A stretch of DNA of 17,752 nucleotides, taken from positions 1 through 17,752 of the forward strand of contig JAKQSI010000077.1 of assembly GCA_029570205.1 (NCBI GenBank), written 5' to 3'. Both the position numbers and the translations under genes were made by a program. This document shows, piece by piece, positions 10,542 through 17,752 of the stretch. The notes under the pieces were generated by a model that was not told the origin of the DNA, ran no database searches, and was given only the letters and a program-made list of their open reading frames with translations. Source of the stretch: Candidatus Omnitrophota bacterium. Its GTDB lineage: Bacteria; Hinthialibacterota; Hinthialibacteria; Hinthialibacterales; JAKPRU01. Within the stretch, counting starts at the first letter, position 1. Each line of letters begins with the position of its first letter.

Positions 10542-11057
10542 ATGGAACAAATTCTCATGATTCGACGCGCTCTTGTCCGAGATGTGAAAGAAATCAAGTC
10601 GCTCAATGACCGATACCGGGAGGAGGGCAACCTGCTGCCGCGGTCATTGACAGACATTTATGAAAACGTGCGGGATTTTTTTGTGATCGACAAGGATGGG
10701 AAGATTGGCGGATGTGTGGCTTTGCATGTGGTCTGGGAGGACTTGGCGGAGATCAAGTCCCTTGTCATCGACCGGGAATTTCGAAAGAAGGGGTATGGGG
10801 ACCGACTGTTTCTGACCGCGATGCGTGAGGCGCGGGATTTGCAGGTTGCCGATGTATTCGCGCTGACCGCGATTCCCGGATATTTCACCGCGAAGGGGTT
10901 CAAGGAGATCGACAAGTCCGTCCTGCCGCATAAAGTCTGGGCGGAATGTGTGAAATGCCCCAAGTTCCCCGATTGCGATGAGGTGGCGGTGATCGCGAAT
11001 GTGACGGAATGGTTTGCAACGTATGGGGCCAAGTTCGGAACCGAGGAGGTTGCCTGA
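10542..11057 (+). CDS. GNAT acetyltransferase, ArgA-like single-domain type
   Basis: A 171-residue GNAT-fold protein. The acetyl-CoA-binding motif A is in IKSLVIDREFRKKGYGDRL (71-89; RKKGYG holds the pyrophosphate loop). The C-terminal part 'GYFTAKGFKEIDKSVLPHKVWAECVKCPKFPDCDEVAV' is typical of short ArgA-like enzymes that acetylate glutamate in arginine synthesis in some bacteria. Cys137, Cys140 and Cys146 form a small cluster. Substrate assignment is by resemblance only. ATG 10557 (residue 6, MIRRALVRDVKEI) is a plausible alternative start, because this family often begins there. The stop codon overlaps the next start (TGATG), so it is translationally coupled to a microcompartment protein gene, an unexpected partner for an arginine enzyme. 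Confidence 0.85.
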   Translation: MEQILMIRRALVRDVKEIKSLNDRYREEGNLLPRSLTDIYENVRDFFVIDKDGKIGGCVALHVVWEDLAEIKSLVIDREFRKKGYGDRLFLTAMREARDLQVADVFALTAIPGYFTAKGFKEIDKSVLPHKVWAECVKCPKFPDCDEVAVIANVTEWFATYGAKFGTEEVA

Positions 11058-11356
11058 TGTTTCTGGGAAAAGTAGTCGGCACGGTGGTTTCCACTCAAAA
11101 AGATCCGAAGCTGCGGGGTGGAAAACTCCTGGTTGTTCAGCATGTCACGATGGACCTCGAACCGGCCAGGGGGTTTGCCGTCGCGATGGATTCGGTCGGC
11201 GCCGGGCAGGGGGAACTTGTCATTTGTGCCTCCGGATCCTCCGCGCGTATGACCGAAGTTACTGAGGGGCTGCCGGTGGATACCGTGATTCTGGGGATTG
11301 TGGACAGTTTGGAGATCGAAGGAAAGATTGTATTTCGCAAGGAAGAAGAAGGTTGA
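11057..11356 (+). CDS. EutN/CcmL family microcompartment vertex protein (copy 1)
   Basis: A 99-residue protein of the EutN/CcmL (BMC-P, Pfam PF03319) family, whose pentamers close the vertices of bacterial microcompartment shells. MFLGKVVGTVVSTQKDPKLRGGKLLVVQ is the standard N-terminal strand pair. GAGQGELVICASGSSAR (68-84) is the conserved loop region. VDTVILGIVDSLEIEG is the typical C-terminal strand. The start ATG 11057 overlaps the GNAT stop, with GAGGAGGT 7 nt before it. A second, divergent copy follows. No hexameric shell gene or encapsulated enzyme lies in this window. Confidence 0.93.
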   Translation: MFLGKVVGTVVSTQKDPKLRGGKLLVVQHVTMDLEPARGFAVAMDSVGAGQGELVICASGSSARMTEVTEGLPVDTVILGIVDSLEIEGKIVFRKEEEG

Positions 11357-11513
11357 CCCCCCTCCATCCCCCCGTAAACGGTGGGAAGAATCTCCCTCCC
11401 TGTTTACGGGGAGGGCCGGGGTTGGGGAAAGCTGTTCTTGCGGGGAGGGGCGGGGTGGGGGAGTGCTGTTCTCACGGGGAGGGCCGGGATGGGCAAAGAA
11501 GGAGTAACCTGTC
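11357..11513. repeat. G-rich iterated segment with a 10-bp inverted repeat
   Basis: CCCCGTAAAC (11370-11379) and GTTTACGGGG (11402-11411) are perfect inverted arms, 22 bp apart. They are followed by three imperfect copies of an element beginning GGGGAGGG and ending in a G/T-rich run; the last two are preceded by GCTGTTCT. The plus strand is very G-rich. It separates the two EutN genes and looks like a small non-autonomous or slippage-derived repeat. It could also form G-rich secondary structure in the mRNA. Confidence 0.5.
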
Positions 11514-11804
11514 ATGCAGATGGCGAAAGTAATCGGATCGGTTTGGGCGACGCGCAGACATTCCAGTTTGGGCGGGGTGAAACTATGTATTATCCAGCCG
11601 GTCGATCACGAGCGGAAACCACAGGGAGTGCCGTTAATTGCTCCCGATATCACCAACCAGGTCGGGCGTGGCGAGTTTGTCTTCTTTGTAGATGGCGGCG
11701 ATGCAACCCGCCTCGCCCCCGGCCCACGTCTACCGTATGACGCGGCTGTAGTGGGGATTATCGACAGTTTGTCGACGGATGGGGAAGAACTGACGGAAGT
11801 GTGA
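11514..11804 (+). CDS. EutN/CcmL family microcompartment vertex protein (copy 2)
   Basis: A 96-residue second member of the EutN/CcmL family, clearly diverged from copy 1. It has AKVIGSVWATRRHSSLGGVKLCIIQPVD at the N-terminus and the RGEFVFFVDGGDATR loop. The C-terminal strand is AAVVGIIDSLSTDG. Diverged pairs or trios of BMC-P paralogues are common in complex microcompartment loci, where they may occupy different vertices. The start is ATG 11514, with AAGGAG 9 nt before it; the ATG at 11520 is too far away. It is probably in the GNAT-EutN transcript despite the 157-bp repeat-rich gap. Confidence 0.92.
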   Translation: MQMAKVIGSVWATRRHSSLGGVKLCIIQPVDHERKPQGVPLIAPDITNQVGRGEFVFFVDGGDATRLAPGPRLPYDAAVVGIIDSLSTDGEELTEV

Positions 11805-11868: not shown

Positions 11869-11899
11869 AAAAAAATGGCCGCCCTTTTTGAGGGGCGGC
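11869..11899 (-). terminator. Rho-independent terminator of tracrRNA
   Basis: On the minus strand GCCGCCC (11899-11893) pairs perfectly with GGGCGGC (11884-11878) around an 8-nt loop. It is followed by CA and seven T (11875-11869). This is a strong, canonical terminator and also the last tracrRNA hairpin. Confidence 0.92.
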
Positions 11900-11947
11900 A
11901 TGACGCTCCGTAGAGCGGCGCCTGCGAATCTTTCGTCTTGTTACGAA

Positions 11948-11976
11948 TAGACTCTCAGGCTGAGATCAGTTACAAT
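11948..11976 (+). promoter_or_regulatory. cas9: Promoter-like element toward cas9, inside the anti-repeat
   Basis: TAGACT (11948-11953, 4/6), a 17-bp spacer and TACAAT (11971-11976, 5/6) read toward cas9, with transcription expected near 11983 and a leader of about 68 nt. It is the plus-strand face of the tracrRNA anti-repeat and corresponds to the promoter-like TTGACT-16-TACAAT in each CRISPR repeat. No better cas9 promoter is visible between here and the start codon. Confidence 0.45.
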
Positions 11977-11982
11977 AACCGT

Positions 11983-12011
11983 ACTATACAGCAATCGTAG
12001 CGGACTGTCAA
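11983..12011 (-). promoter_or_regulatory. tracrRNA promoter
   Basis: On the minus strand a perfect TTGACA (12011-12006) is followed by a 17-bp spacer and TATAGT (11988-11983, 5/6). The start would be about 7 nt downstream, at the first base of the anti-repeat. It lies between tracrRNA and cas9 and faces the putative cas9 promoter. Confidence 0.9.
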
Positions 12012-12050
12012 TACCTTCTATCGATCTTTTTCATGAGGAGGAATCCTTCC

Positions 12051-15038
12051 ATGTCGGATTACACACTCGGAATCGACCTGGGGCCGAATTCTATCGGATG
12101 GGCGCTTGTGGATGAGAAGGCCGGATGCCTGCTGAATGCGGGAGTCCGCGTGTTTCCCGAAGGTGTGGACCGCGATCAGCAGGGCGGAGAACTATCCAAG
12201 AATGAAACACGACGAACTGCACGGGGAACACGTCGGCAGATTGCGCGCCGTGCCCGACGGAAGAAACGTTTGCTGAAACAATTGGTCGAAGCGGGTCTAT
12301 TTCCGTCCGATCCCGGCGAACAAGAGAAACTGTTTTCCGCCGATCCGTATCAACTAAGGCTCCGCGCCTTGACGGAGCGTCTCTCCATTCATGAGTTCGG
12401 AAGAGTACTGATCCACCTGAATCAACGTCGCGGATTCCTCTTAAACCGAAAGAGTGACCGGGTCAAGAAAAAAGAGACTTCGGACATGCTGAAGGAAATC
12501 AGCGAACTGGCGAATCGGATTGAAAGTGGCGGGCATCAGACACTCGGCGAGTACCTGGCTGTCTTCCAGGAAGAGTCAAGGCAGAGTTCTGCAAGAGGAT
12601 TGCCCGAAAAGATTAGGGGCAAACATACCCGGCGCGATATGTACGAAAGGGAATTTGCTCTCCTCTGGCAAAGACAGCAGCAATACCATCCCGATCTGCT
12701 CACCGATGACCTTCGGCAGAAGATTCATGATACCATTTTCCATCAGCGTCCCTTGCACCCGGTTGCGAAACTCGTGGGGCGATGCGAACTCGAACGTGGG
12801 GAACGCCGATGCCCCAGGGCGGATAGGCAAGCCCAGCGGTTTCGCCTGTTCCAGGAAGTGAATAACTTACGGTTGCTCGACATGACCACGGGCGAGGAAA
12901 GGCCCCTGGAAGAGAGGGAACGCCGGACATTACTGGAATACCTGGCAACGGGGAAAGAAAAGAGTTTTGACGATATCCGCGAGAAACTCGGATTCTTTGA
13001 AAGCTGCAAGTTCAATTTCGAAGATGCAAAGCGGACAAAACTTCAGGGAATGCAAACGGACGCGATATTGGCGAACAAGAATCTCTTCGGGAAACACTGG
13101 TACGACTTCCCGGAACCGAGAAAGAACGAGATTGTCGAAACGCTTCTCGAAGAACAAGACCCGAAGGCCTTGATTGAAAAGGCCGTCGGAGAGTGGTGTG
13201 TTACTCCCGAAGTGGCCGAGAAATTGGCGGATGTGGATCTTCCTGCCGGGTATATGAACTTCAGCCGGAAGGCCATCGAGAAATTGCTGCCTCACCTGGA
13301 GCGCGGCCTTCCCCTCATGGCGGGAGATAATTCTCCGTCTGCAATGACCGAAGCCGGGTATCTTCGACCCGATCAAAGACGATCAAAGCCGTTGGGATTC
13401 CTGCCCCGACCTCCACAGGACATCCCGAATCCCATTGTCAGACAGGCGTTGCACGAAGTGCGCGGTCTGGTCAATGCCATTATCCGCGAATACGGAAAAC
13501 CGGCACGGATTCAGATTGAATTGGCAAGGGAAGTGAAAGGCTCCTTGAGAAGCCGTGAGGAAATTCTCAAGACGAACAGAGAGCGGGAAAGAGAGCGCAA
13601 AGAGGCCGCTCAAAAGATTGAGGAAGAGGGGCATAAACCCACACGAGACGCCATCGAACGATATCGCCTCTGGGAGGAACAAACTCATATCTGCATTTAT
13701 TCGGGAAGAACCATCAGCCTCGCGCAAGTACTCGGCGGCGAAGTGGACGTGGATCATATTCTTCCATACGCGCGCAGCCTGGATAACTCCTATGCGAACA
13801 AGGTGCTCTGTTTCCGATCCGCCAACGCCGAGAAGAAAGACCGAACGCCTTATGAGTGGCTTGCGGAATCCGATGCGGCCCGCTACGACGAAATCCTTCA
13901 GCGCGCACAGAAATTGCCGTACAACAAACGGCGTAAGTTCAGCCGGAAAGATGTGGAACTGGACCATTTCATCGCTCGGCAGTTGGTCGATACGGCCTAT
14001 ATCAGCCGGAAAGTGGCGGAATATGTCCGTTGTCTTGGTGCAGATGTTGTTTGCACTAAAGGTCAGTTGACCGCCGAATTGCGCCATTTCTGGGGGCTTG
14101 ACAACATTCTCAATCCGGCCTGGGAAGGTTATGAGAAATGCCGGGACGATCATCGTCATCATGCCGTCGATGCCATCGTGATCGCCTTGACAGACAGATC
14201 TCGCCTTCAGCAACTCGCAGCAGTCCGGCGATATACCCGCGATCCCCTGCAAAGAATGCTGCCGCCGCCGTGGGACAATTTCCGCGACGACGTGGAAAAG
14301 GCTGTGAATGCAATCAATGTATCCCACCGCGTTAGGCGGAAAGTGTCGGGAGCGTTGCACGAAGAAACCATTTACGGGCCGACAAAGCAGGAGGGAGTCT
14401 TTGTTTATCGCAAACCGGTGGAGTCTCTCACCACCAGTATGATTGAGGATATCCGCGATCCGTCCATCCGGGAAATCATTGTTCGGCGTCTGCGAGAACA
14501 CGGCATCGATCCTTCAGCGAAACAGAAGATCTCCGCCGCTGTTTGGAAAGAACCGCTCACCATGCCGTCCGGTGTGCCGATCAAGAAAGTGCGCCTCCTC
14601 AGAAAAGACAAGACAGTTCAACGCATTCGGAATGGAGATGCAGCGGCTTATATCAAACCCGGCAGTAACCACCATGTCTGCATCTTCGAGATGCCGGACG
14701 GGAAACGAGATGCCATCTTTACTACTATGCTCGAAGCCGCCCGCCGCACCAGGGATGGGGAACCGATTATCCGGCGGGAACACCCAACCTGCCCGGAGGC
14801 GAAATTCCTTAGGTCCCTGAGTGCAAATGAGATGGTGATCATTGAAAATGGGGGCAAAAAAGAACTGTGCCGATTTGAAACCGCCGCCGCAACAAGTCGG
14901 CAAATGTGGTTCCGCCACCACACATTCTCTGGGAAGAGCAGTGACAAACGGGGACAGATTAGCAGGATGCCGAACAGCTTTGAGGGACGGAAAGTGACCG
15001 TGGATCGCTTAGGGCGGATTCGCTGGGCGAATGATTGA
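12051..15038 (+). CDS. cas9: CRISPR-associated endonuclease Cas9, type II-C
   Basis: A 995-residue compact Cas9, the RNA-guided enzyme that cuts both strands of target DNA. RuvC-I is LGIDLGPNSIGWAL with Asp9. The Arg-rich bridge helix spans about 52-80. RuvC-II is IQIELARE with Glu490. The HNH nuclease lies around ICIYSG...DVDHILPYARS, with Asp568, His569 and probable Asn592. RuvC-III is HHAVDA with His704 and Asp707. All nuclease residues are present, so the protein should be active. The short recognition lobe and the size fit subtype II-C (CjCas9 and NmeCas9 are about 980-1080 aa). ATG 12051 follows AGGAGGA by 7-8 nt; a frame-extending ATG at 12033 lies before this site and is rejected. The PAM cannot be read from the sequence. 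cas1 follows after 27 bp. Confidence 0.97.
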   Translation: MSDYTLGIDLGPNSIGWALVDEKAGCLLNAGVRVFPEGVDRDQQGGELSKNETRRTARGTRRQIARRARRKKRLLKQLVEAGLFPSDPGEQEKLFSADPYQLRLRALTERLSIHEFGRVLIHLNQRRGFLLNRKSDRVKKKETSDMLKEISELANRIESGGHQTLGEYLAVFQEESRQSSARGLPEKIRGKHTRRDMYEREFALLWQRQQQYHPDLLTDDLRQKIHDTIFHQRPLHPVAKLVGRCELERGERRCPRADRQAQRFRLFQEVNNLRLLDMTTGEERPLEERERRTLLEYLATGKEKSFDDIREKLGFFESCKFNFEDAKRTKLQGMQTDAILANKNLFGKHWYDFPEPRKNEIVETLLEEQDPKALIEKAVGEWCVTPEVAEKLADVDLPAGYMNFSRKAIEKLLPHLERGLPLMAGDNSPSAMTEAGYLRPDQRRSKPLGFLPRPPQDIPNPIVRQALHEVRGLVNAIIREYGKPARIQIELAREVKGSLRSREEILKTNRERERERKEAAQKIEEEGHKPTRDAIERYRLWEEQTHICIYSGRTISLAQVLGGEVDVDHILPYARSLDNSYANKVLCFRSANAEKKDRTPYEWLAESDAARYDEILQRAQKLPYNKRRKFSRKDVELDHFIARQLVDTAYISRKVAEYVRCLGADVVCTKGQLTAELRHFWGLDNILNPAWEGYEKCRDDHRHHAVDAIVIALTDRSRLQQLAAVRRYTRDPLQRMLPPPWDNFRDDVEKAVNAINVSHRVRRKVSGALHEETIYGPTKQEGVFVYRKPVESLTTSMIEDIRDPSIREIIVRRLREHGIDPSAKQKISAAVWKEPLTMPSGVPIKKVRLLRKDKTVQRIRNGDAAAYIKPGSNHHVCIFEMPDGKRDAIFTTMLEAARRTRDGEPIIRREHPTCPEAKFLRSLSANEMVIIENGGKKELCRFETAAATSRQMWFRHHTFSGKSSDKRGQISRMPNSFEGRKVTVDRLGRIRWAND

Positions 15039-15065: not shown

Positions 15066-15992
15066 GTGATCAAACAGACCATCGAGATTTCGAGCAAGCC
15101 GACCCATCTGCGGGTGCGGAACGGCCAACTGCAGATCGAACAACGGGAGGATGAATCGAAAACAACCGCAAGCGTTCCGTGTGAGGATATCGGTATCCTG
15201 GTGGTGGACCAGGTTCAGACCACGTATACCCACAGCGCGCTTACGACATTGGCGGAGTCCGGGGCGATTGTGCTGGTCTGCGGCCAGGACCATTTGCCGG
15301 TCGGGATGCTGTTGCCGCTGGCGGAGCACACCGAGGTGGTCTGGCGTATTGCGGAACAGATCGACATTTCAAAACCGCTTCAGAAACAATTATGGCGTCA
15401 GCTGGTCCAGGCAAAGATTCGCGCCCAGGCGAAGAACCTCCCGGAGAACACCCCGCAGAGGACGAGACTCTTGAATCTTGCGCAGCGGGTCCGGTCCGGC
15501 GATCCGAGCAACATGGAGGCGCAAGCCGCAAAGGTATACTGGTCTGCCTGGCTCGAAGAGAATCATCCGTTCCGGAGAGACCCGGACGGGAAAGACCCTC
15601 TGAACAGCCTCCTGAACTACGGCTATGCGGTGCTTCGGGCCGCAGTGGCGCGGGCGGTGGTCTGTGCGGGATTGCTCCCCGCCATCGGGCTTCACCATGC
15701 CAACCGTTCGAATGCGTTCTGCCTGGCGGATGACCTGATGGAGCCGCTTCGCCCGCTGGTGGATGCCCGTGTCCGGTCGCTGTATGGAAGCGGCTGTCGG
15801 GAAATCGATCCGGCCGCCAAGCAGGAGTTATTGGGGATTCTGACGCAAAAAGCTTCGTCAAAAGATGGCGCGACGGGGCCGCTTATGGTATCCTTACAGC
15901 GAATGGTGGCATCATTGGTTCATTGCTTCGAGGGAAATGAGAAGGAAATCGACATCCCAACTGCAGTCGACACTTGCGAATCATGCAATTGA
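15066..15992 (+). CDS. cas1: CRISPR integrase Cas1, type II
   Basis: A 308-residue Cas1, the integrase that with Cas2 inserts new spacers. The N-terminal beta domain is followed by the alpha-helical catalytic domain. The metal ligands are visible as Glu151 in NMEAQAAKVYW, the His pair 210-211 in IGLHHANRSN, and the acidic residues 222-226 in LADDLMEPLRP. The sequence is of the type II (Cas9-associated) kind. The start is GTG 15066, with GGGAGG 8 nt before it. It overlaps cas2 by 10 bp, so the two are translationally coupled. No csn2 or cas4 is present, which fits subtype II-C. Confidence 0.97.
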   Translation: MIKQTIEISSKPTHLRVRNGQLQIEQREDESKTTASVPCEDIGILVVDQVQTTYTHSALTTLAESGAIVLVCGQDHLPVGMLLPLAEHTEVVWRIAEQIDISKPLQKQLWRQLVQAKIRAQAKNLPENTPQRTRLLNLAQRVRSGDPSNMEAQAAKVYWSAWLEENHPFRRDPDGKDPLNSLLNYGYAVLRAAVARAVVCAGLLPAIGLHHANRSNAFCLADDLMEPLRPLVDARVRSLYGSGCREIDPAAKQELLGILTQKASSKDGATGPLMVSLQRMVASLVHCFEGNEKEIDIPTAVDTCESCN

Positions 15993-16312
15993 GCGGATAT
16001 CGGTGCATGTGGATTGTTGTCATGTTCGACCTGCCGATGGATACCAAGAAGGCGCGCTATGCATACGCGCAATTCCGGAAAGAACTGCTGAAGGACGGAT
16101 TCGAGAAGATGCAATATTCGGTGTATATCCGTCATTCCTCAAGCGAGGAGAATGCGGAAGTTCACGAGAATCGCGTGAAGCGGACTCTCCCCCCAGACGG
16201 GGAGGTTCGGATTCTCACGATCACAGACAAACAATTCGAGCGGATGCGCGTTTTCTGGGGAAAACGCCGCAAACCGCCCGAATCTCCACCCCAACAACTG
16301 ATGTTTTTCTGA
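15983..16312 (+). CDS. cas2: CRISPR adaptation protein Cas2
   Basis: A 109-residue Cas2, which forms the dimer that bridges two Cas1 dimers during spacer acquisition. The ferredoxin-like strand MWIVVMFDLPMDTKK holds the conserved Asp16. The C-terminal 'PPQQLMFF' is typical of type II Cas2. ATG 15983 lies inside the end of cas1 (10-bp overlap). The N-terminus MQLSGYRCMW matches the form common in type II Cas2 proteins, so this start is preferred over ATG 16007 or the upstream TTG. The CRISPR array begins 48 bp after the stop. Confidence 0.95.
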   Translation: MQLSGYRCMWIVVMFDLPMDTKKARYAYAQFRKELLKDGFEKMQYSVYIRHSSSEENAEVHENRVKRTLPPDGEVRILTITDKQFERMRVFWGKRRKPPESPPQQLMFF

Positions 16313-16360
16313 AGCCTTCTGCACCTAACTCCCTGTCAATTCAGGACTTGCGACAGGCAG

Positions 16361-16396
16361 ATTGTAACTGATCCCAGCCTGAAGTCAATCCGCAAC
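16361..16396 (-). promoter_or_regulatory. Promoter embedded in the CRISPR repeat (first of 21 full copies)
   Basis: Read on the minus strand, repeat bases 9-14 are TTGACT and bases 31-36 are TACAAT, separated by 16 bp. Both boxes match sigma70 consensus at 5/6. Every full repeat in the array has both boxes; the variant repeat at 17019 also keeps them, because its substitution lies outside. Transcription would start several bases inside the neighbouring spacer. This repeat is the last one, so its promoter would read leftwards into the end of cas2. Confidence 0.7.
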
Positions 16397-17752
16397 ACAG
16401 ACAGAAGAGAAATCGCCGCAATCAATTGTAACTGATCCCAGCCTGAAGTCAATCCGCAACGGTGAACACTTCGGGCATTGTCGGTCGTACATTGTAACTG
16501 ATCCCAGCCTGAAGTCAATCCGCAACGAGGAACCGCCTGCAACCGGGGAGGAACCTATTGTAACTGATCCCAGCCTGAAGTCAATCCGCAACGAATAAGG
16601 TTGGCGAACATCGAGGACACTGATTGTAACTGATCCCAGCCTGAAGTCAATCCGCAACCGTTGTATTCGATGGCTGCGTCCGGTAAGCATTGTAACTGAT
16701 CCCAGCCTGAAGTCAATCCGCAACATCCTGATGGTGGTTTCGGTCTGTCCACAAATTGTAACTGATCCCAGCCTGAAGTCAATCCGCAACACACCGGAGC
16801 ATTTGGATAATTCATGTACGATTGTAACTGATCCCAGCCTGAAGTCAATCCGCAACGCCCCTGTCAATTCGTCTTTTCGTACCGCAATTGTAACTGATCC
16901 CAGCCTGAAGTCAATCCGCAACCACTGCGTCCACAGTGTCTATTGGGCCTTTATTGTAACTGATCCCAGCCTGAAGTCAATCCGCAACAGCCCGATACAC
17001 CGAGCGGCAAGCGGCTTCATTGTAACTGATCCCAGCCTGAAGTCAATCCGAAACAATAGGACCCAACCGCTTTGCCGGTACTCTATTGTAACTGATCCCA
17101 GCCTGAAGTCAATCCGCAACGGTTGCATAGGAGATCCCTGATGCCTGTGCATTGTAACTGATCCCAGCCTGAAGTCAATCCGCAACATCGCAATCGGGTC
17201 CCCTGCGATGCGGTAATTGTAACTGATCCCAGCCTGAAGTCAATCCGCAACGTTGTTTTGTCGGGGCATTTTGTCGGAAGTATTGTAACTGATCCCAGCC
17301 TGAAGTCAATCCGCAACTATCGCAATCGGGTCCCCGGCGATGCGGTAATTGTAACTGATCCCAGCCTGAAGTCAATCCGCAACGATTTGGCGTTGGTGCA
17401 GCAATCGGGTGGGATTGTAACTGATCCCAGCCTGAAGTCAATCCGCAACAAATACATTACCATCGCTCGGCGTGGTGGGATTGTAACTGATCCCAGCCTG
17501 AAGTCAATCCGCAACGATTTGGCGTTGGTGCAGCAATCGGGTGGGATTGTAACTGATCCCAGCCTGAAGTCAATCCGCAACAACAGGATGGACACGAGAC
17601 GGCGATGTCCAATTGTAACTGATCCCAGCCTGAAGTCAATCCGCAACAAGACTGAGTTGACATGGGCGCAAATGATAATTGTAACTGATCCCAGCCTGAA
17701 GTCAATCCGCAACAAGCGCTTCACTCGATGTACCCAATTCAATATTGTAACT
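16361..17752 (-). CRISPR. Type II-C CRISPR array, 21 full repeats plus a partial one, open at the right edge
   Basis: The repeat is 36 bp. On the plus strand it begins ATTGTAACTGATCCC and ends GTCAATCCGCAAC. Repeats start at 16361, 16425, 16491, 16557, 16623, 16689, 16755, 16821, 16887, 16953, 17019, 17085, 17151, 17216, 17282, 17348, 17414, 17480, 17546, 17612, 17678 and 17744 (the last is cut off). Spacers are 30 bp except the first (28) and the thirteenth (29). All repeats are identical except the eleventh, which has one substitution at 17051. The crRNA direction is minus: this gives the GTTG...ACAAT form known for II-C repeats, and the tracrRNA anti-repeat pairs with that strand. The array therefore converges on cas9-cas1-cas2. 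The far end and any leader are outside the window. Confidence 0.98.

What the first reader, a model, noticed from the sequence alone, without database searches (positions are those of the whole stretch)
16361..17752. Every CRISPR repeat carries its own promoter, so each crRNA may be made independently
On the crRNA strand each 36-bp repeat contains TTGACT-16-TACAAT, with the -10 box forming the last six bases of the repeat. A start about 7 nt downstream would fall inside the next spacer and leave about 23 nt of guide. This is the design described for Neisseria meningitidis type II-C, where each repeat has a promoter and crRNA 5' ends come from initiation rather than processing. Here the sequence of the repeat is different, and the -35 box is close to consensus, so the same logic seems to be kept in a distant lineage.
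Basis: partly seen in the sequence, partly recalled or inferred. Interest (0 to 1): 0.75.

Follow-up and report, generated by a model that had tools for sequence, protein, structure and literature searches.

The report
A promoter in every CRISPR repeat
This bacterial immune locus from an uncultured lineage very probably starts a separate guide RNA from a small promoter inside each CRISPR repeat, as is known for type II-C systems; comparing about 130 loci suggests that the promoter is kept by selection and changes to the form that the host's own RNA polymerase reads.

Summary
All 21 full repeats (16361-17713) read GTTGCGGATTGACTTCAGGCTGGGATCAGTTACAAT on the minus strand: TTGACT-16-TACAAT, with the -10 box as the last six bases. 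A tracrRNA gene (anti-repeat 11940-11976, hairpins, terminator, its own TTGACA-17-TATAGT promoter) fixes the crRNA strand independently. The locus is type II-C (cas9-cas1-cas2, array transcribed toward cas2). A promoter in each repeat is already the published rule for II-C, so this is a new member of a known kind, in an uncultured phylum. My added tests support promoter function. In 50 non-Bacteroidota repeat clusters, 46 end in TAnnnT (shuffles 1.4). In Bacteroidota, whose known promoter is TAnnTTTG, that 3' end is mostly lost (4/28) and TAnnTTTG appears instead (>=5/6 match in 21/28, against 4/50 elsewhere). The oldest repeat loses its crRNA handle but keeps this promoter end. Weak point: the "-35" TTG is a II-C-wide motif, present even where promoter spacing is wrong, so it is not independent evidence. 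No RNA data exist for this organism, so initiation-defined 5' ends remain inferred. The host-dialect switch is the novel part; I found no report of it in the open literature searched.

The parts
16361..17752 (-). CRISPR array, 21 full 36-bp repeats plus a partial one at the window end; crRNA sense is minus; continues on contig C76 (23 repeats in all)
16361..16366 (-). -10 box TACAAT in the cas2-proximal repeat; the same hexamer is at the low-coordinate end of every repeat (16425, 16491, ... 17678)
   Evidence: conservation
16383..16388 (-). -35-like TTGACT in the cas2-proximal repeat, 16 nt from the -10; repeated in every copy
   Evidence: functional weight doubtful
11878..11976 (-). tracrRNA gene: anti-repeat, two hairpins, intrinsic terminator
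   Evidence: anti-repeat score 51 against the repeat, no other hit above background; fold z = -5.3; terminator
11940..11976 (-). anti-repeat of the tracrRNA
11878..11899 (-). intrinsic terminator of the tracrRNA, 7 G-C pairs then a T run
11983..12011 (-). tracrRNA promoter TTGACA-17-TATAGT; start predicted at the first base of the anti-repeat
   Evidence: same place in most related loci
12051..15038 (+). cas9 (995 aa; the longer frame starts at 12033, inside the ribosome-binding site)
   Evidence: TIGR01865 749 bits, Pfam RuvC_III, HNH_4, Cas9_a
15066..15992 (+). cas1, type II (NMENI)
   Evidence: TIGR03639 247 bits
15974..16312 (+). cas2
   Evidence: TIGR01573 72 bits; PADLOC Cas2_II
16313..16360 (.). 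leader-like region between cas2 and the array, conserved in a second species of the genus and partly in the order

Best explanation
This is a type II-C CRISPR-Cas locus in which each repeat carries a sigma-70-type promoter. RNA polymerase binds within a repeat, with the -10 as its last six bases, and starts 6-8 nt into the following spacer. The transcript holds about 24 nt of guide and then the next repeat, whose first part pairs with the tracrRNA and binds Cas9. New spacers enter at the other end, beside cas2, so transcription runs toward the leader and no leader promoter is needed. Shown by sequence comparison: array, strand, tracrRNA, conservation of the promoter core, its change to TAnnTTTG in Bacteroidota, the old end at the crRNA 5' side. 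Inferred: that the promoter is active in this organism, the start position, and that 5' ends need no processing.
For: Repeat and promoter in every copy. tracrRNA sets the strand. Three relatives of the window's class keep TTGA and TACAnT at 16-nt spacing although the rest differs: GTTGCGGATTGATCACAGATTGGGATTGATTACACT (L015, Cas9 59% identical) and GCTGTGGCTTGACGGGAATCCCCGCTTGGATACACT (L016, 38%). Outside Bacteroidota, 46 clusters: T31 46/46, A32 46/46, A34 40/46, T36 42/46; 25 of 27 clusters in a second set collected after the pattern was seen. Columns 18-25 pair with the anti-repeat about as faithfully but vary freely, so pairing alone does not explain the fixed hexamer. In Bacteroidota the hexamer is lost (4/28 against 46/50, p = 4e-12) and TAnnTTTG is present (>=5/6: 21/28 against 4/50, p = 2e-9; shuffles 8.0 of 29 expected, 21 seen). 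The crRNA-5'-most repeat is mutated in 22/57 arrays, the 3'-most in 2/69, and its mutations fall in columns 1-8 (72) and hardly in 26-36 (4, two of them toward TATAAT). Internal initiation was shown experimentally in C. jejuni (PMC3656092) and is reported for N. meningitidis (cited in PMC7038990). Guide lengths of 23-26 nt in C. cellulolyticum (PMC7038990) and 24-25 nt in Defluviimonas (PMC7708072) fit a start 5-7 nt into a 30-nt spacer.
Against: No RNA data from this lineage. The promoter score of the repeat is lower than that of the tracrRNA promoter in the same loci (mean 7.7 against 10.9). The TTG of the -35 is present in II-C repeats whatever the promoter type. No sign of start-site selection in 1156 spacers, although none is required. 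Erosion of the oldest repeat from outside would also leave its 3' end, and heavily truncated copies were not detectable.
Confidence: 0.82

Rival explanations
1. The fixed 3' end of the repeat is kept for crRNA:tracrRNA pairing and RNase III cleavage, and its likeness to a promoter is a by-product.
For: The anti-repeat matches columns 17-33 of the repeat in 83-100% of loci.
Against: Equally well paired columns 18-25 vary freely through changes on both sides, while 31, 32, 34 and 36 do not. Pairing cannot explain the change to a host-type promoter motif in Bacteroidota.
Confidence: 0.08
2. The fixed end is a Cas1-Cas2 integration signal at the repeat border rather than a promoter.
For: The motif sits exactly at the repeat border, and T at column 26 is also highly conserved (37/46) with no clear promoter role.
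Against: In Bacteroidota the border sequence is different (mostly CAAC/CAGC) and the conserved motif sits inside the repeat with the host promoter's sequence. The oldest repeat, no longer used for integration, keeps this end.
Confidence: 0.06
3. The array is made as one long precursor from an outside promoter at its crRNA 5' end and processed; the internal promoters are silent.
For: One weak 9/12 site reads toward the array about 240 bp upstream (L009 478-451). Internal activity is unmeasured.
Against: No promoter-like site within about 240 bp upstream of the first repeat; the conserved leader is at the opposite end, next to cas2. Selection evidence as above.
Confidence: 0.04

Closest known systems
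Neisseria meningitidis / Pasteurella type II-C arrays with repeat-embedded promoters
   Same: cas9-cas1-cas2, tracrRNA beside cas9, 36-bp repeats ending in TACAAT, array transcribed against the cas operon; closest solved Cas9 relatives are 1,082-1,092-residue Cas9 chains such as 6jdq, which I take from memory to be NmeCas9
   Different: Those repeats have an extended -10 (TGCTACAAT) and no TTG at the -35 place (L169, L197); this repeat has TTGACT at 16 nt and no TGn
Campylobacter jejuni II-C minimal system (PMC3656092)
   Same: one start in each spacer, -10 in the 3' part of the upstream repeat, shown by dRNA-seq
   Different: repeat sequence; per reference 31 in that paper C. jejuni RpoD promoters lack a -35 box
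Clostridium cellulolyticum II-C (PMC7038990)
   Same: end of repeat resembles an extended -10; transcribed opposite to cas genes; 23-26-nt guides
   Different: no -35 described; different phylum
Bacteroidota II-C arrays (Flavobacterium, Bacteroides fragilis, Phocaeicola, Prevotella)
   Same: same locus plan, same conserved GTTGTG..TTG start of the repeat
   Different: 46-47-bp repeats are common, with TAnnTTTG-type core instead of TAnAnT; Riemerella repeats were reported to lack promoters (PMC5006608), and F. columnare was credited only with a TTG at -33 (PMC8092290)

Membership tests
CRISPR-Cas type II-C | Cas9 effector with RuvC and HNH domains | tested here: met
   TIGR01865 749 bits over the whole protein; Pfam RuvC_III and HNH_4
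CRISPR-Cas type II-C | only cas9, cas1, cas2 (no csn2, no cas4) | tested here: met
   No other gene lies between cas9 and the array; the genes upstream are EutN/CcmL and GNAT. Genes beyond the far array end on C76 showed no cas gene among the frames listed by eye
CRISPR-Cas type II-C | Cas1 of the II/NMENI family | tested here: met
   TIGR03639 and PADLOC Cas1_II
CRISPR-Cas type II-C | tracrRNA with anti-repeat and terminator | tested here: met
II-C arrays transcribed from repeat promoters | array transcribed against the cas operon, toward the acquisition end | tested here: met
   Orientation by tracrRNA. Old end at the crRNA 5' side shown across the set; the window's own array is nearly mutation-free and does not show it by itself
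II-C arrays transcribed from repeat promoters | -10 box at the repeat 3' end in each repeat | tested here: met
II-C arrays transcribed from repeat promoters | primary 5' end in each spacer | not testable with these tools
   needs 5'-end mapping of RNA
Neisseria-type repeat promoter | extended -10 (TGnTAnAAT), no -35 | tested here: not met
   triplet before TACAAT is AGT; TTGACT lies 16 nt upstream

The most novel reading that the evidence does not exclude
CRISPR repeats of type II-C follow the promoter dialect of their host: sigma-70-type TAnAnT at the repeat end in most phyla, TAnnTTTG inside the repeat in Bacteroidota. The repeat is thus a three-way compromise of Cas9/tracrRNA handle, integration site and host-specific promoter, and a II-C array moved between such hosts should fail to make crRNA until its repeat changes.
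Probability: 0.65. Interest if true: 0.65.

Novelty: new member of a known kind. Interest (0 to 1): 0.45.

Why it matters
For the window itself: it extends a known design to an uncultured phylum. More widely, the comparison gives evolutionary evidence that repeat promoters are general in II-C and under selection, including in Bacteroidota where they were reported missing or only partly recognised. If the promoter must match the host polymerase, it limits which hosts can use a transferred II-C array. It also means that orthogonal Cas9 arrays carried into a new host by plasmid may need their repeats checked, or an outside promoter added.

Tried and rejected
(1) -35 as independent evidence: TTG at 16-17 nt is in 23 of 27 clusters and the shuffle test is strong (Fisher 2e-13), but the same TTG is in Bacteroidota repeats at wrong spacing and column 14 is never A, so I do not count it. 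(2) Trade-off between -35 and extended -10: p = 0.01-0.31 depending on clustering; suggestive only. (3) Tree of primary sigma factors to split Bacteroidota by class: badly resolved, and one row was a wrong frame; not used. (4) tracrRNA promoter as a per-locus reading of host dialect: clear outside Bacteroidota, but in 46-47-bp-repeat loci the tracrRNA 5' end could not be placed. (5) Start-site selection in spacers: none seen. (6) A type II-A control set was not obtained with these tools. (7) Rfam holds no match for the tracrRNA.

Full report
What is there. The window holds a CRISPR array from 16361 to its end: 21 full 36-bp repeats and a partial one. Contig C76 of the same genome overlaps the last spacers and completes the array at 23 repeats and 22 spacers. 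Upstream on the plus strand lie cas9 (12051-15038), cas1 (15066-15992) and cas2 (15974-16312). A tracrRNA gene lies just before cas9 on the minus strand: a 37-nt anti-repeat (11940-11976), two hairpins, a G+C-rich terminator with a T run, and a promoter TTGACA-17-TATAGT placed so that transcription would begin at the first base of the anti-repeat. Because the tracrRNA is on the minus strand, the crRNA is read from the minus strand too. This fixes the orientation without using the promoter argument.

The claimed promoter. On that strand each repeat reads GTTGCGGA TTGACT TCAGGCTGGGATCAGT TACAAT. A dinucleotide shuffle of one repeat reaches this score with P = 0.003, or 0.0014 with the -10 exactly at the end. 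The 21 copies are one sequence and not 21 pieces of evidence.

Relatives of the window. The host phylum is small in the collection (14 genomes sampled). Four of those searched have Cas9, the window's own genome among them. A second species of the genus has the identical repeat. A genome of the same order (Cas9 59% identical) has GTTGCGGATTGATCACAGATTGGGATTGATTACACT, and one of the same class (38%) has GCTGTGGCTTGACGGGAATCCCCGCTTGGATACACT. The order and genus relatives carry old labels of Candidatus Omnitrophota.

Wider test outside Bacteroidota. I collected Cas9 loci from named GTDB contigs, from samples of the window's phylum, Pseudomonadota and Planctomycetota and from named plasmids. Arrays were found by script and oriented by anti-repeat plus terminator for most loci. 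A minority were oriented by likeness to tracrRNA-oriented repeats, and a few by the G[TC]TG start. In the 46 clusters outside Bacteroidota (more than 22% different), column 31 is T in 46, column 32 A in 46, column 34 A in 40 and column 36 T in 42, while columns 33 and 35 vary. This is the tolerance pattern of a sigma-70 -10 box. The second set, gathered after the pattern was noticed, gave 25 of 27 clusters with TAnnnT. Shuffling the 3' part gives 1.4 of 50 on average, and 46 were seen. The anti-repeat pairs with columns 17-33 nearly everywhere, and columns 18-25 change freely with it. Pairing alone therefore does not hold the hexamer fixed.

Bacteroidota. The promoter of these bacteria is TAnnTTTG with a TTTG near -33 (used as such in PMC10309648). 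Of 395 sampled Bacteroidota-phylum genomes, 61 have Cas9; I read 40 loci and added named ones. Their repeats (36 to 47 bp) rarely end in TAnnnT (4/28 clusters) and instead hold TAnnTTTG: 6/6 in 8 of 28 (0 of 50 elsewhere, p = 1e-4) and at least 5/6 in 21 of 28 (4 of 50 elsewhere, p = 2e-9). Shuffles of the same repeats give 0.6 and 8.0 of 29. Named Bacteroidia agree: Phocaeicola and Prevotella have TATCTTTG, and so does the B. fragilis repeat printed in PMC9367070. Four clusters have neither motif, and one has both in weak form. Balneola-type members keep a sigma-70-like end (TAGATT or GATATT), so the split within the phylum is not fully resolved. Higher A+T in Bacteroidota is handled by the shuffles and does not explain the loss of the TAnnnT end: 23 of 26 A+T-rich clusters outside Bacteroidota keep it. 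I found no paper in the library that reports this switch; Riemerella repeats were said to lack promoters (PMC5006608), and in F. columnare only the TTG was noted (PMC8092290).

The old end. In crRNA orientation the first repeat is mutated in 22 of 57 arrays, the last in 2 of 69, internal ones in 12 of 1352. The array therefore grows at the crRNA 3' end, next to cas2, where a leader-like stretch is conserved in the genus and order. In 27 decayed first repeats outside Bacteroidota the changes are 72 in columns 1-8, 18 in 9-14, 13 in 15-25, 0 in 26-30 and 4 in 31-36; two of those four change C33 to T, toward TATAAT. Feussner and others had already reported that such changes cluster in the first 15 nt and suggested promoter retention (PMC12080349). 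A caveat is that erosion from outside also leaves the inner end, and strongly truncated copies would be missed.

What speaks against parts of the claim. TTG at columns 9-11 lies where repeat and anti-repeat do not pair well (46% and 29% match at columns 9-10), so it is not held by pairing. But it is also in Bacteroidota repeats, at a distance that usually does not fit their promoter. Columns 12-14 are not enriched for ACA. The near-consensus TTGACT of this window is thus partly lineage-specific luck on top of a II-C-wide motif. Neisseria-type repeats (L169 Pasteurella, L197 with the repeat I know as that of N. meningitidis, L166, L168) have TTCCC or CTCCC there and an extended -10 instead. A trade-off between the two solutions is suggestive but not robust. 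The tracrRNA promoters of the same loci score higher than the repeat promoters (10.9 against 7.7, p = 7e-7).

Verdict. The window feature is a new member of the known II-C class with repeat promoters. The evidence that these promoters are real is now comparative and fairly strong; direct RNA evidence for this lineage is missing. The observation that the repeat promoter follows the host's promoter type is the part worth following.

Noticed in passing
window 11940-11976 (+): Read toward cas9, the anti-repeat carries a degenerate copy of the repeat promoter (TAGACT-17-TACAAT), about 70 bp before the cas9 start; anti-repeats of most related loci keep the TACACT/TACAAT end. It could serve as a cas9 promoter.
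   Followed up: partly
window 17384-17413 and 17516-17545; 17187-17215 and 17318-17347: One spacer occurs twice exactly, and another pair differs by one base plus one extra base, which suggests rearrangement within the array or repeated uptake of the same protospacer.
   Followed up: no
L016 7500-8500: The same-class relative has an array whose repeats are mostly degenerate, with many small insertions and deletions, while cas9 is an open frame; decay or sequencing error.
   Followed up: no
all arrays with 36-bp repeats outside Bacteroidota: 1156 pooled 30-nt spacers show a weak symmetric bias near the middle (less C at 11 and 14, more A and less G at 17), perhaps a trace of prespacer selection.
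   Followed up: no
repeat column 26: T is conserved (37/46 clusters, 27/27 in the first set) at -17 of the promoter, with no clear role.
   Followed up: no
window 11009-11804: Two EutN/CcmL shell-vertex genes (bacterial microcompartment) lie directly upstream of the CRISPR locus.
   Followed up: no
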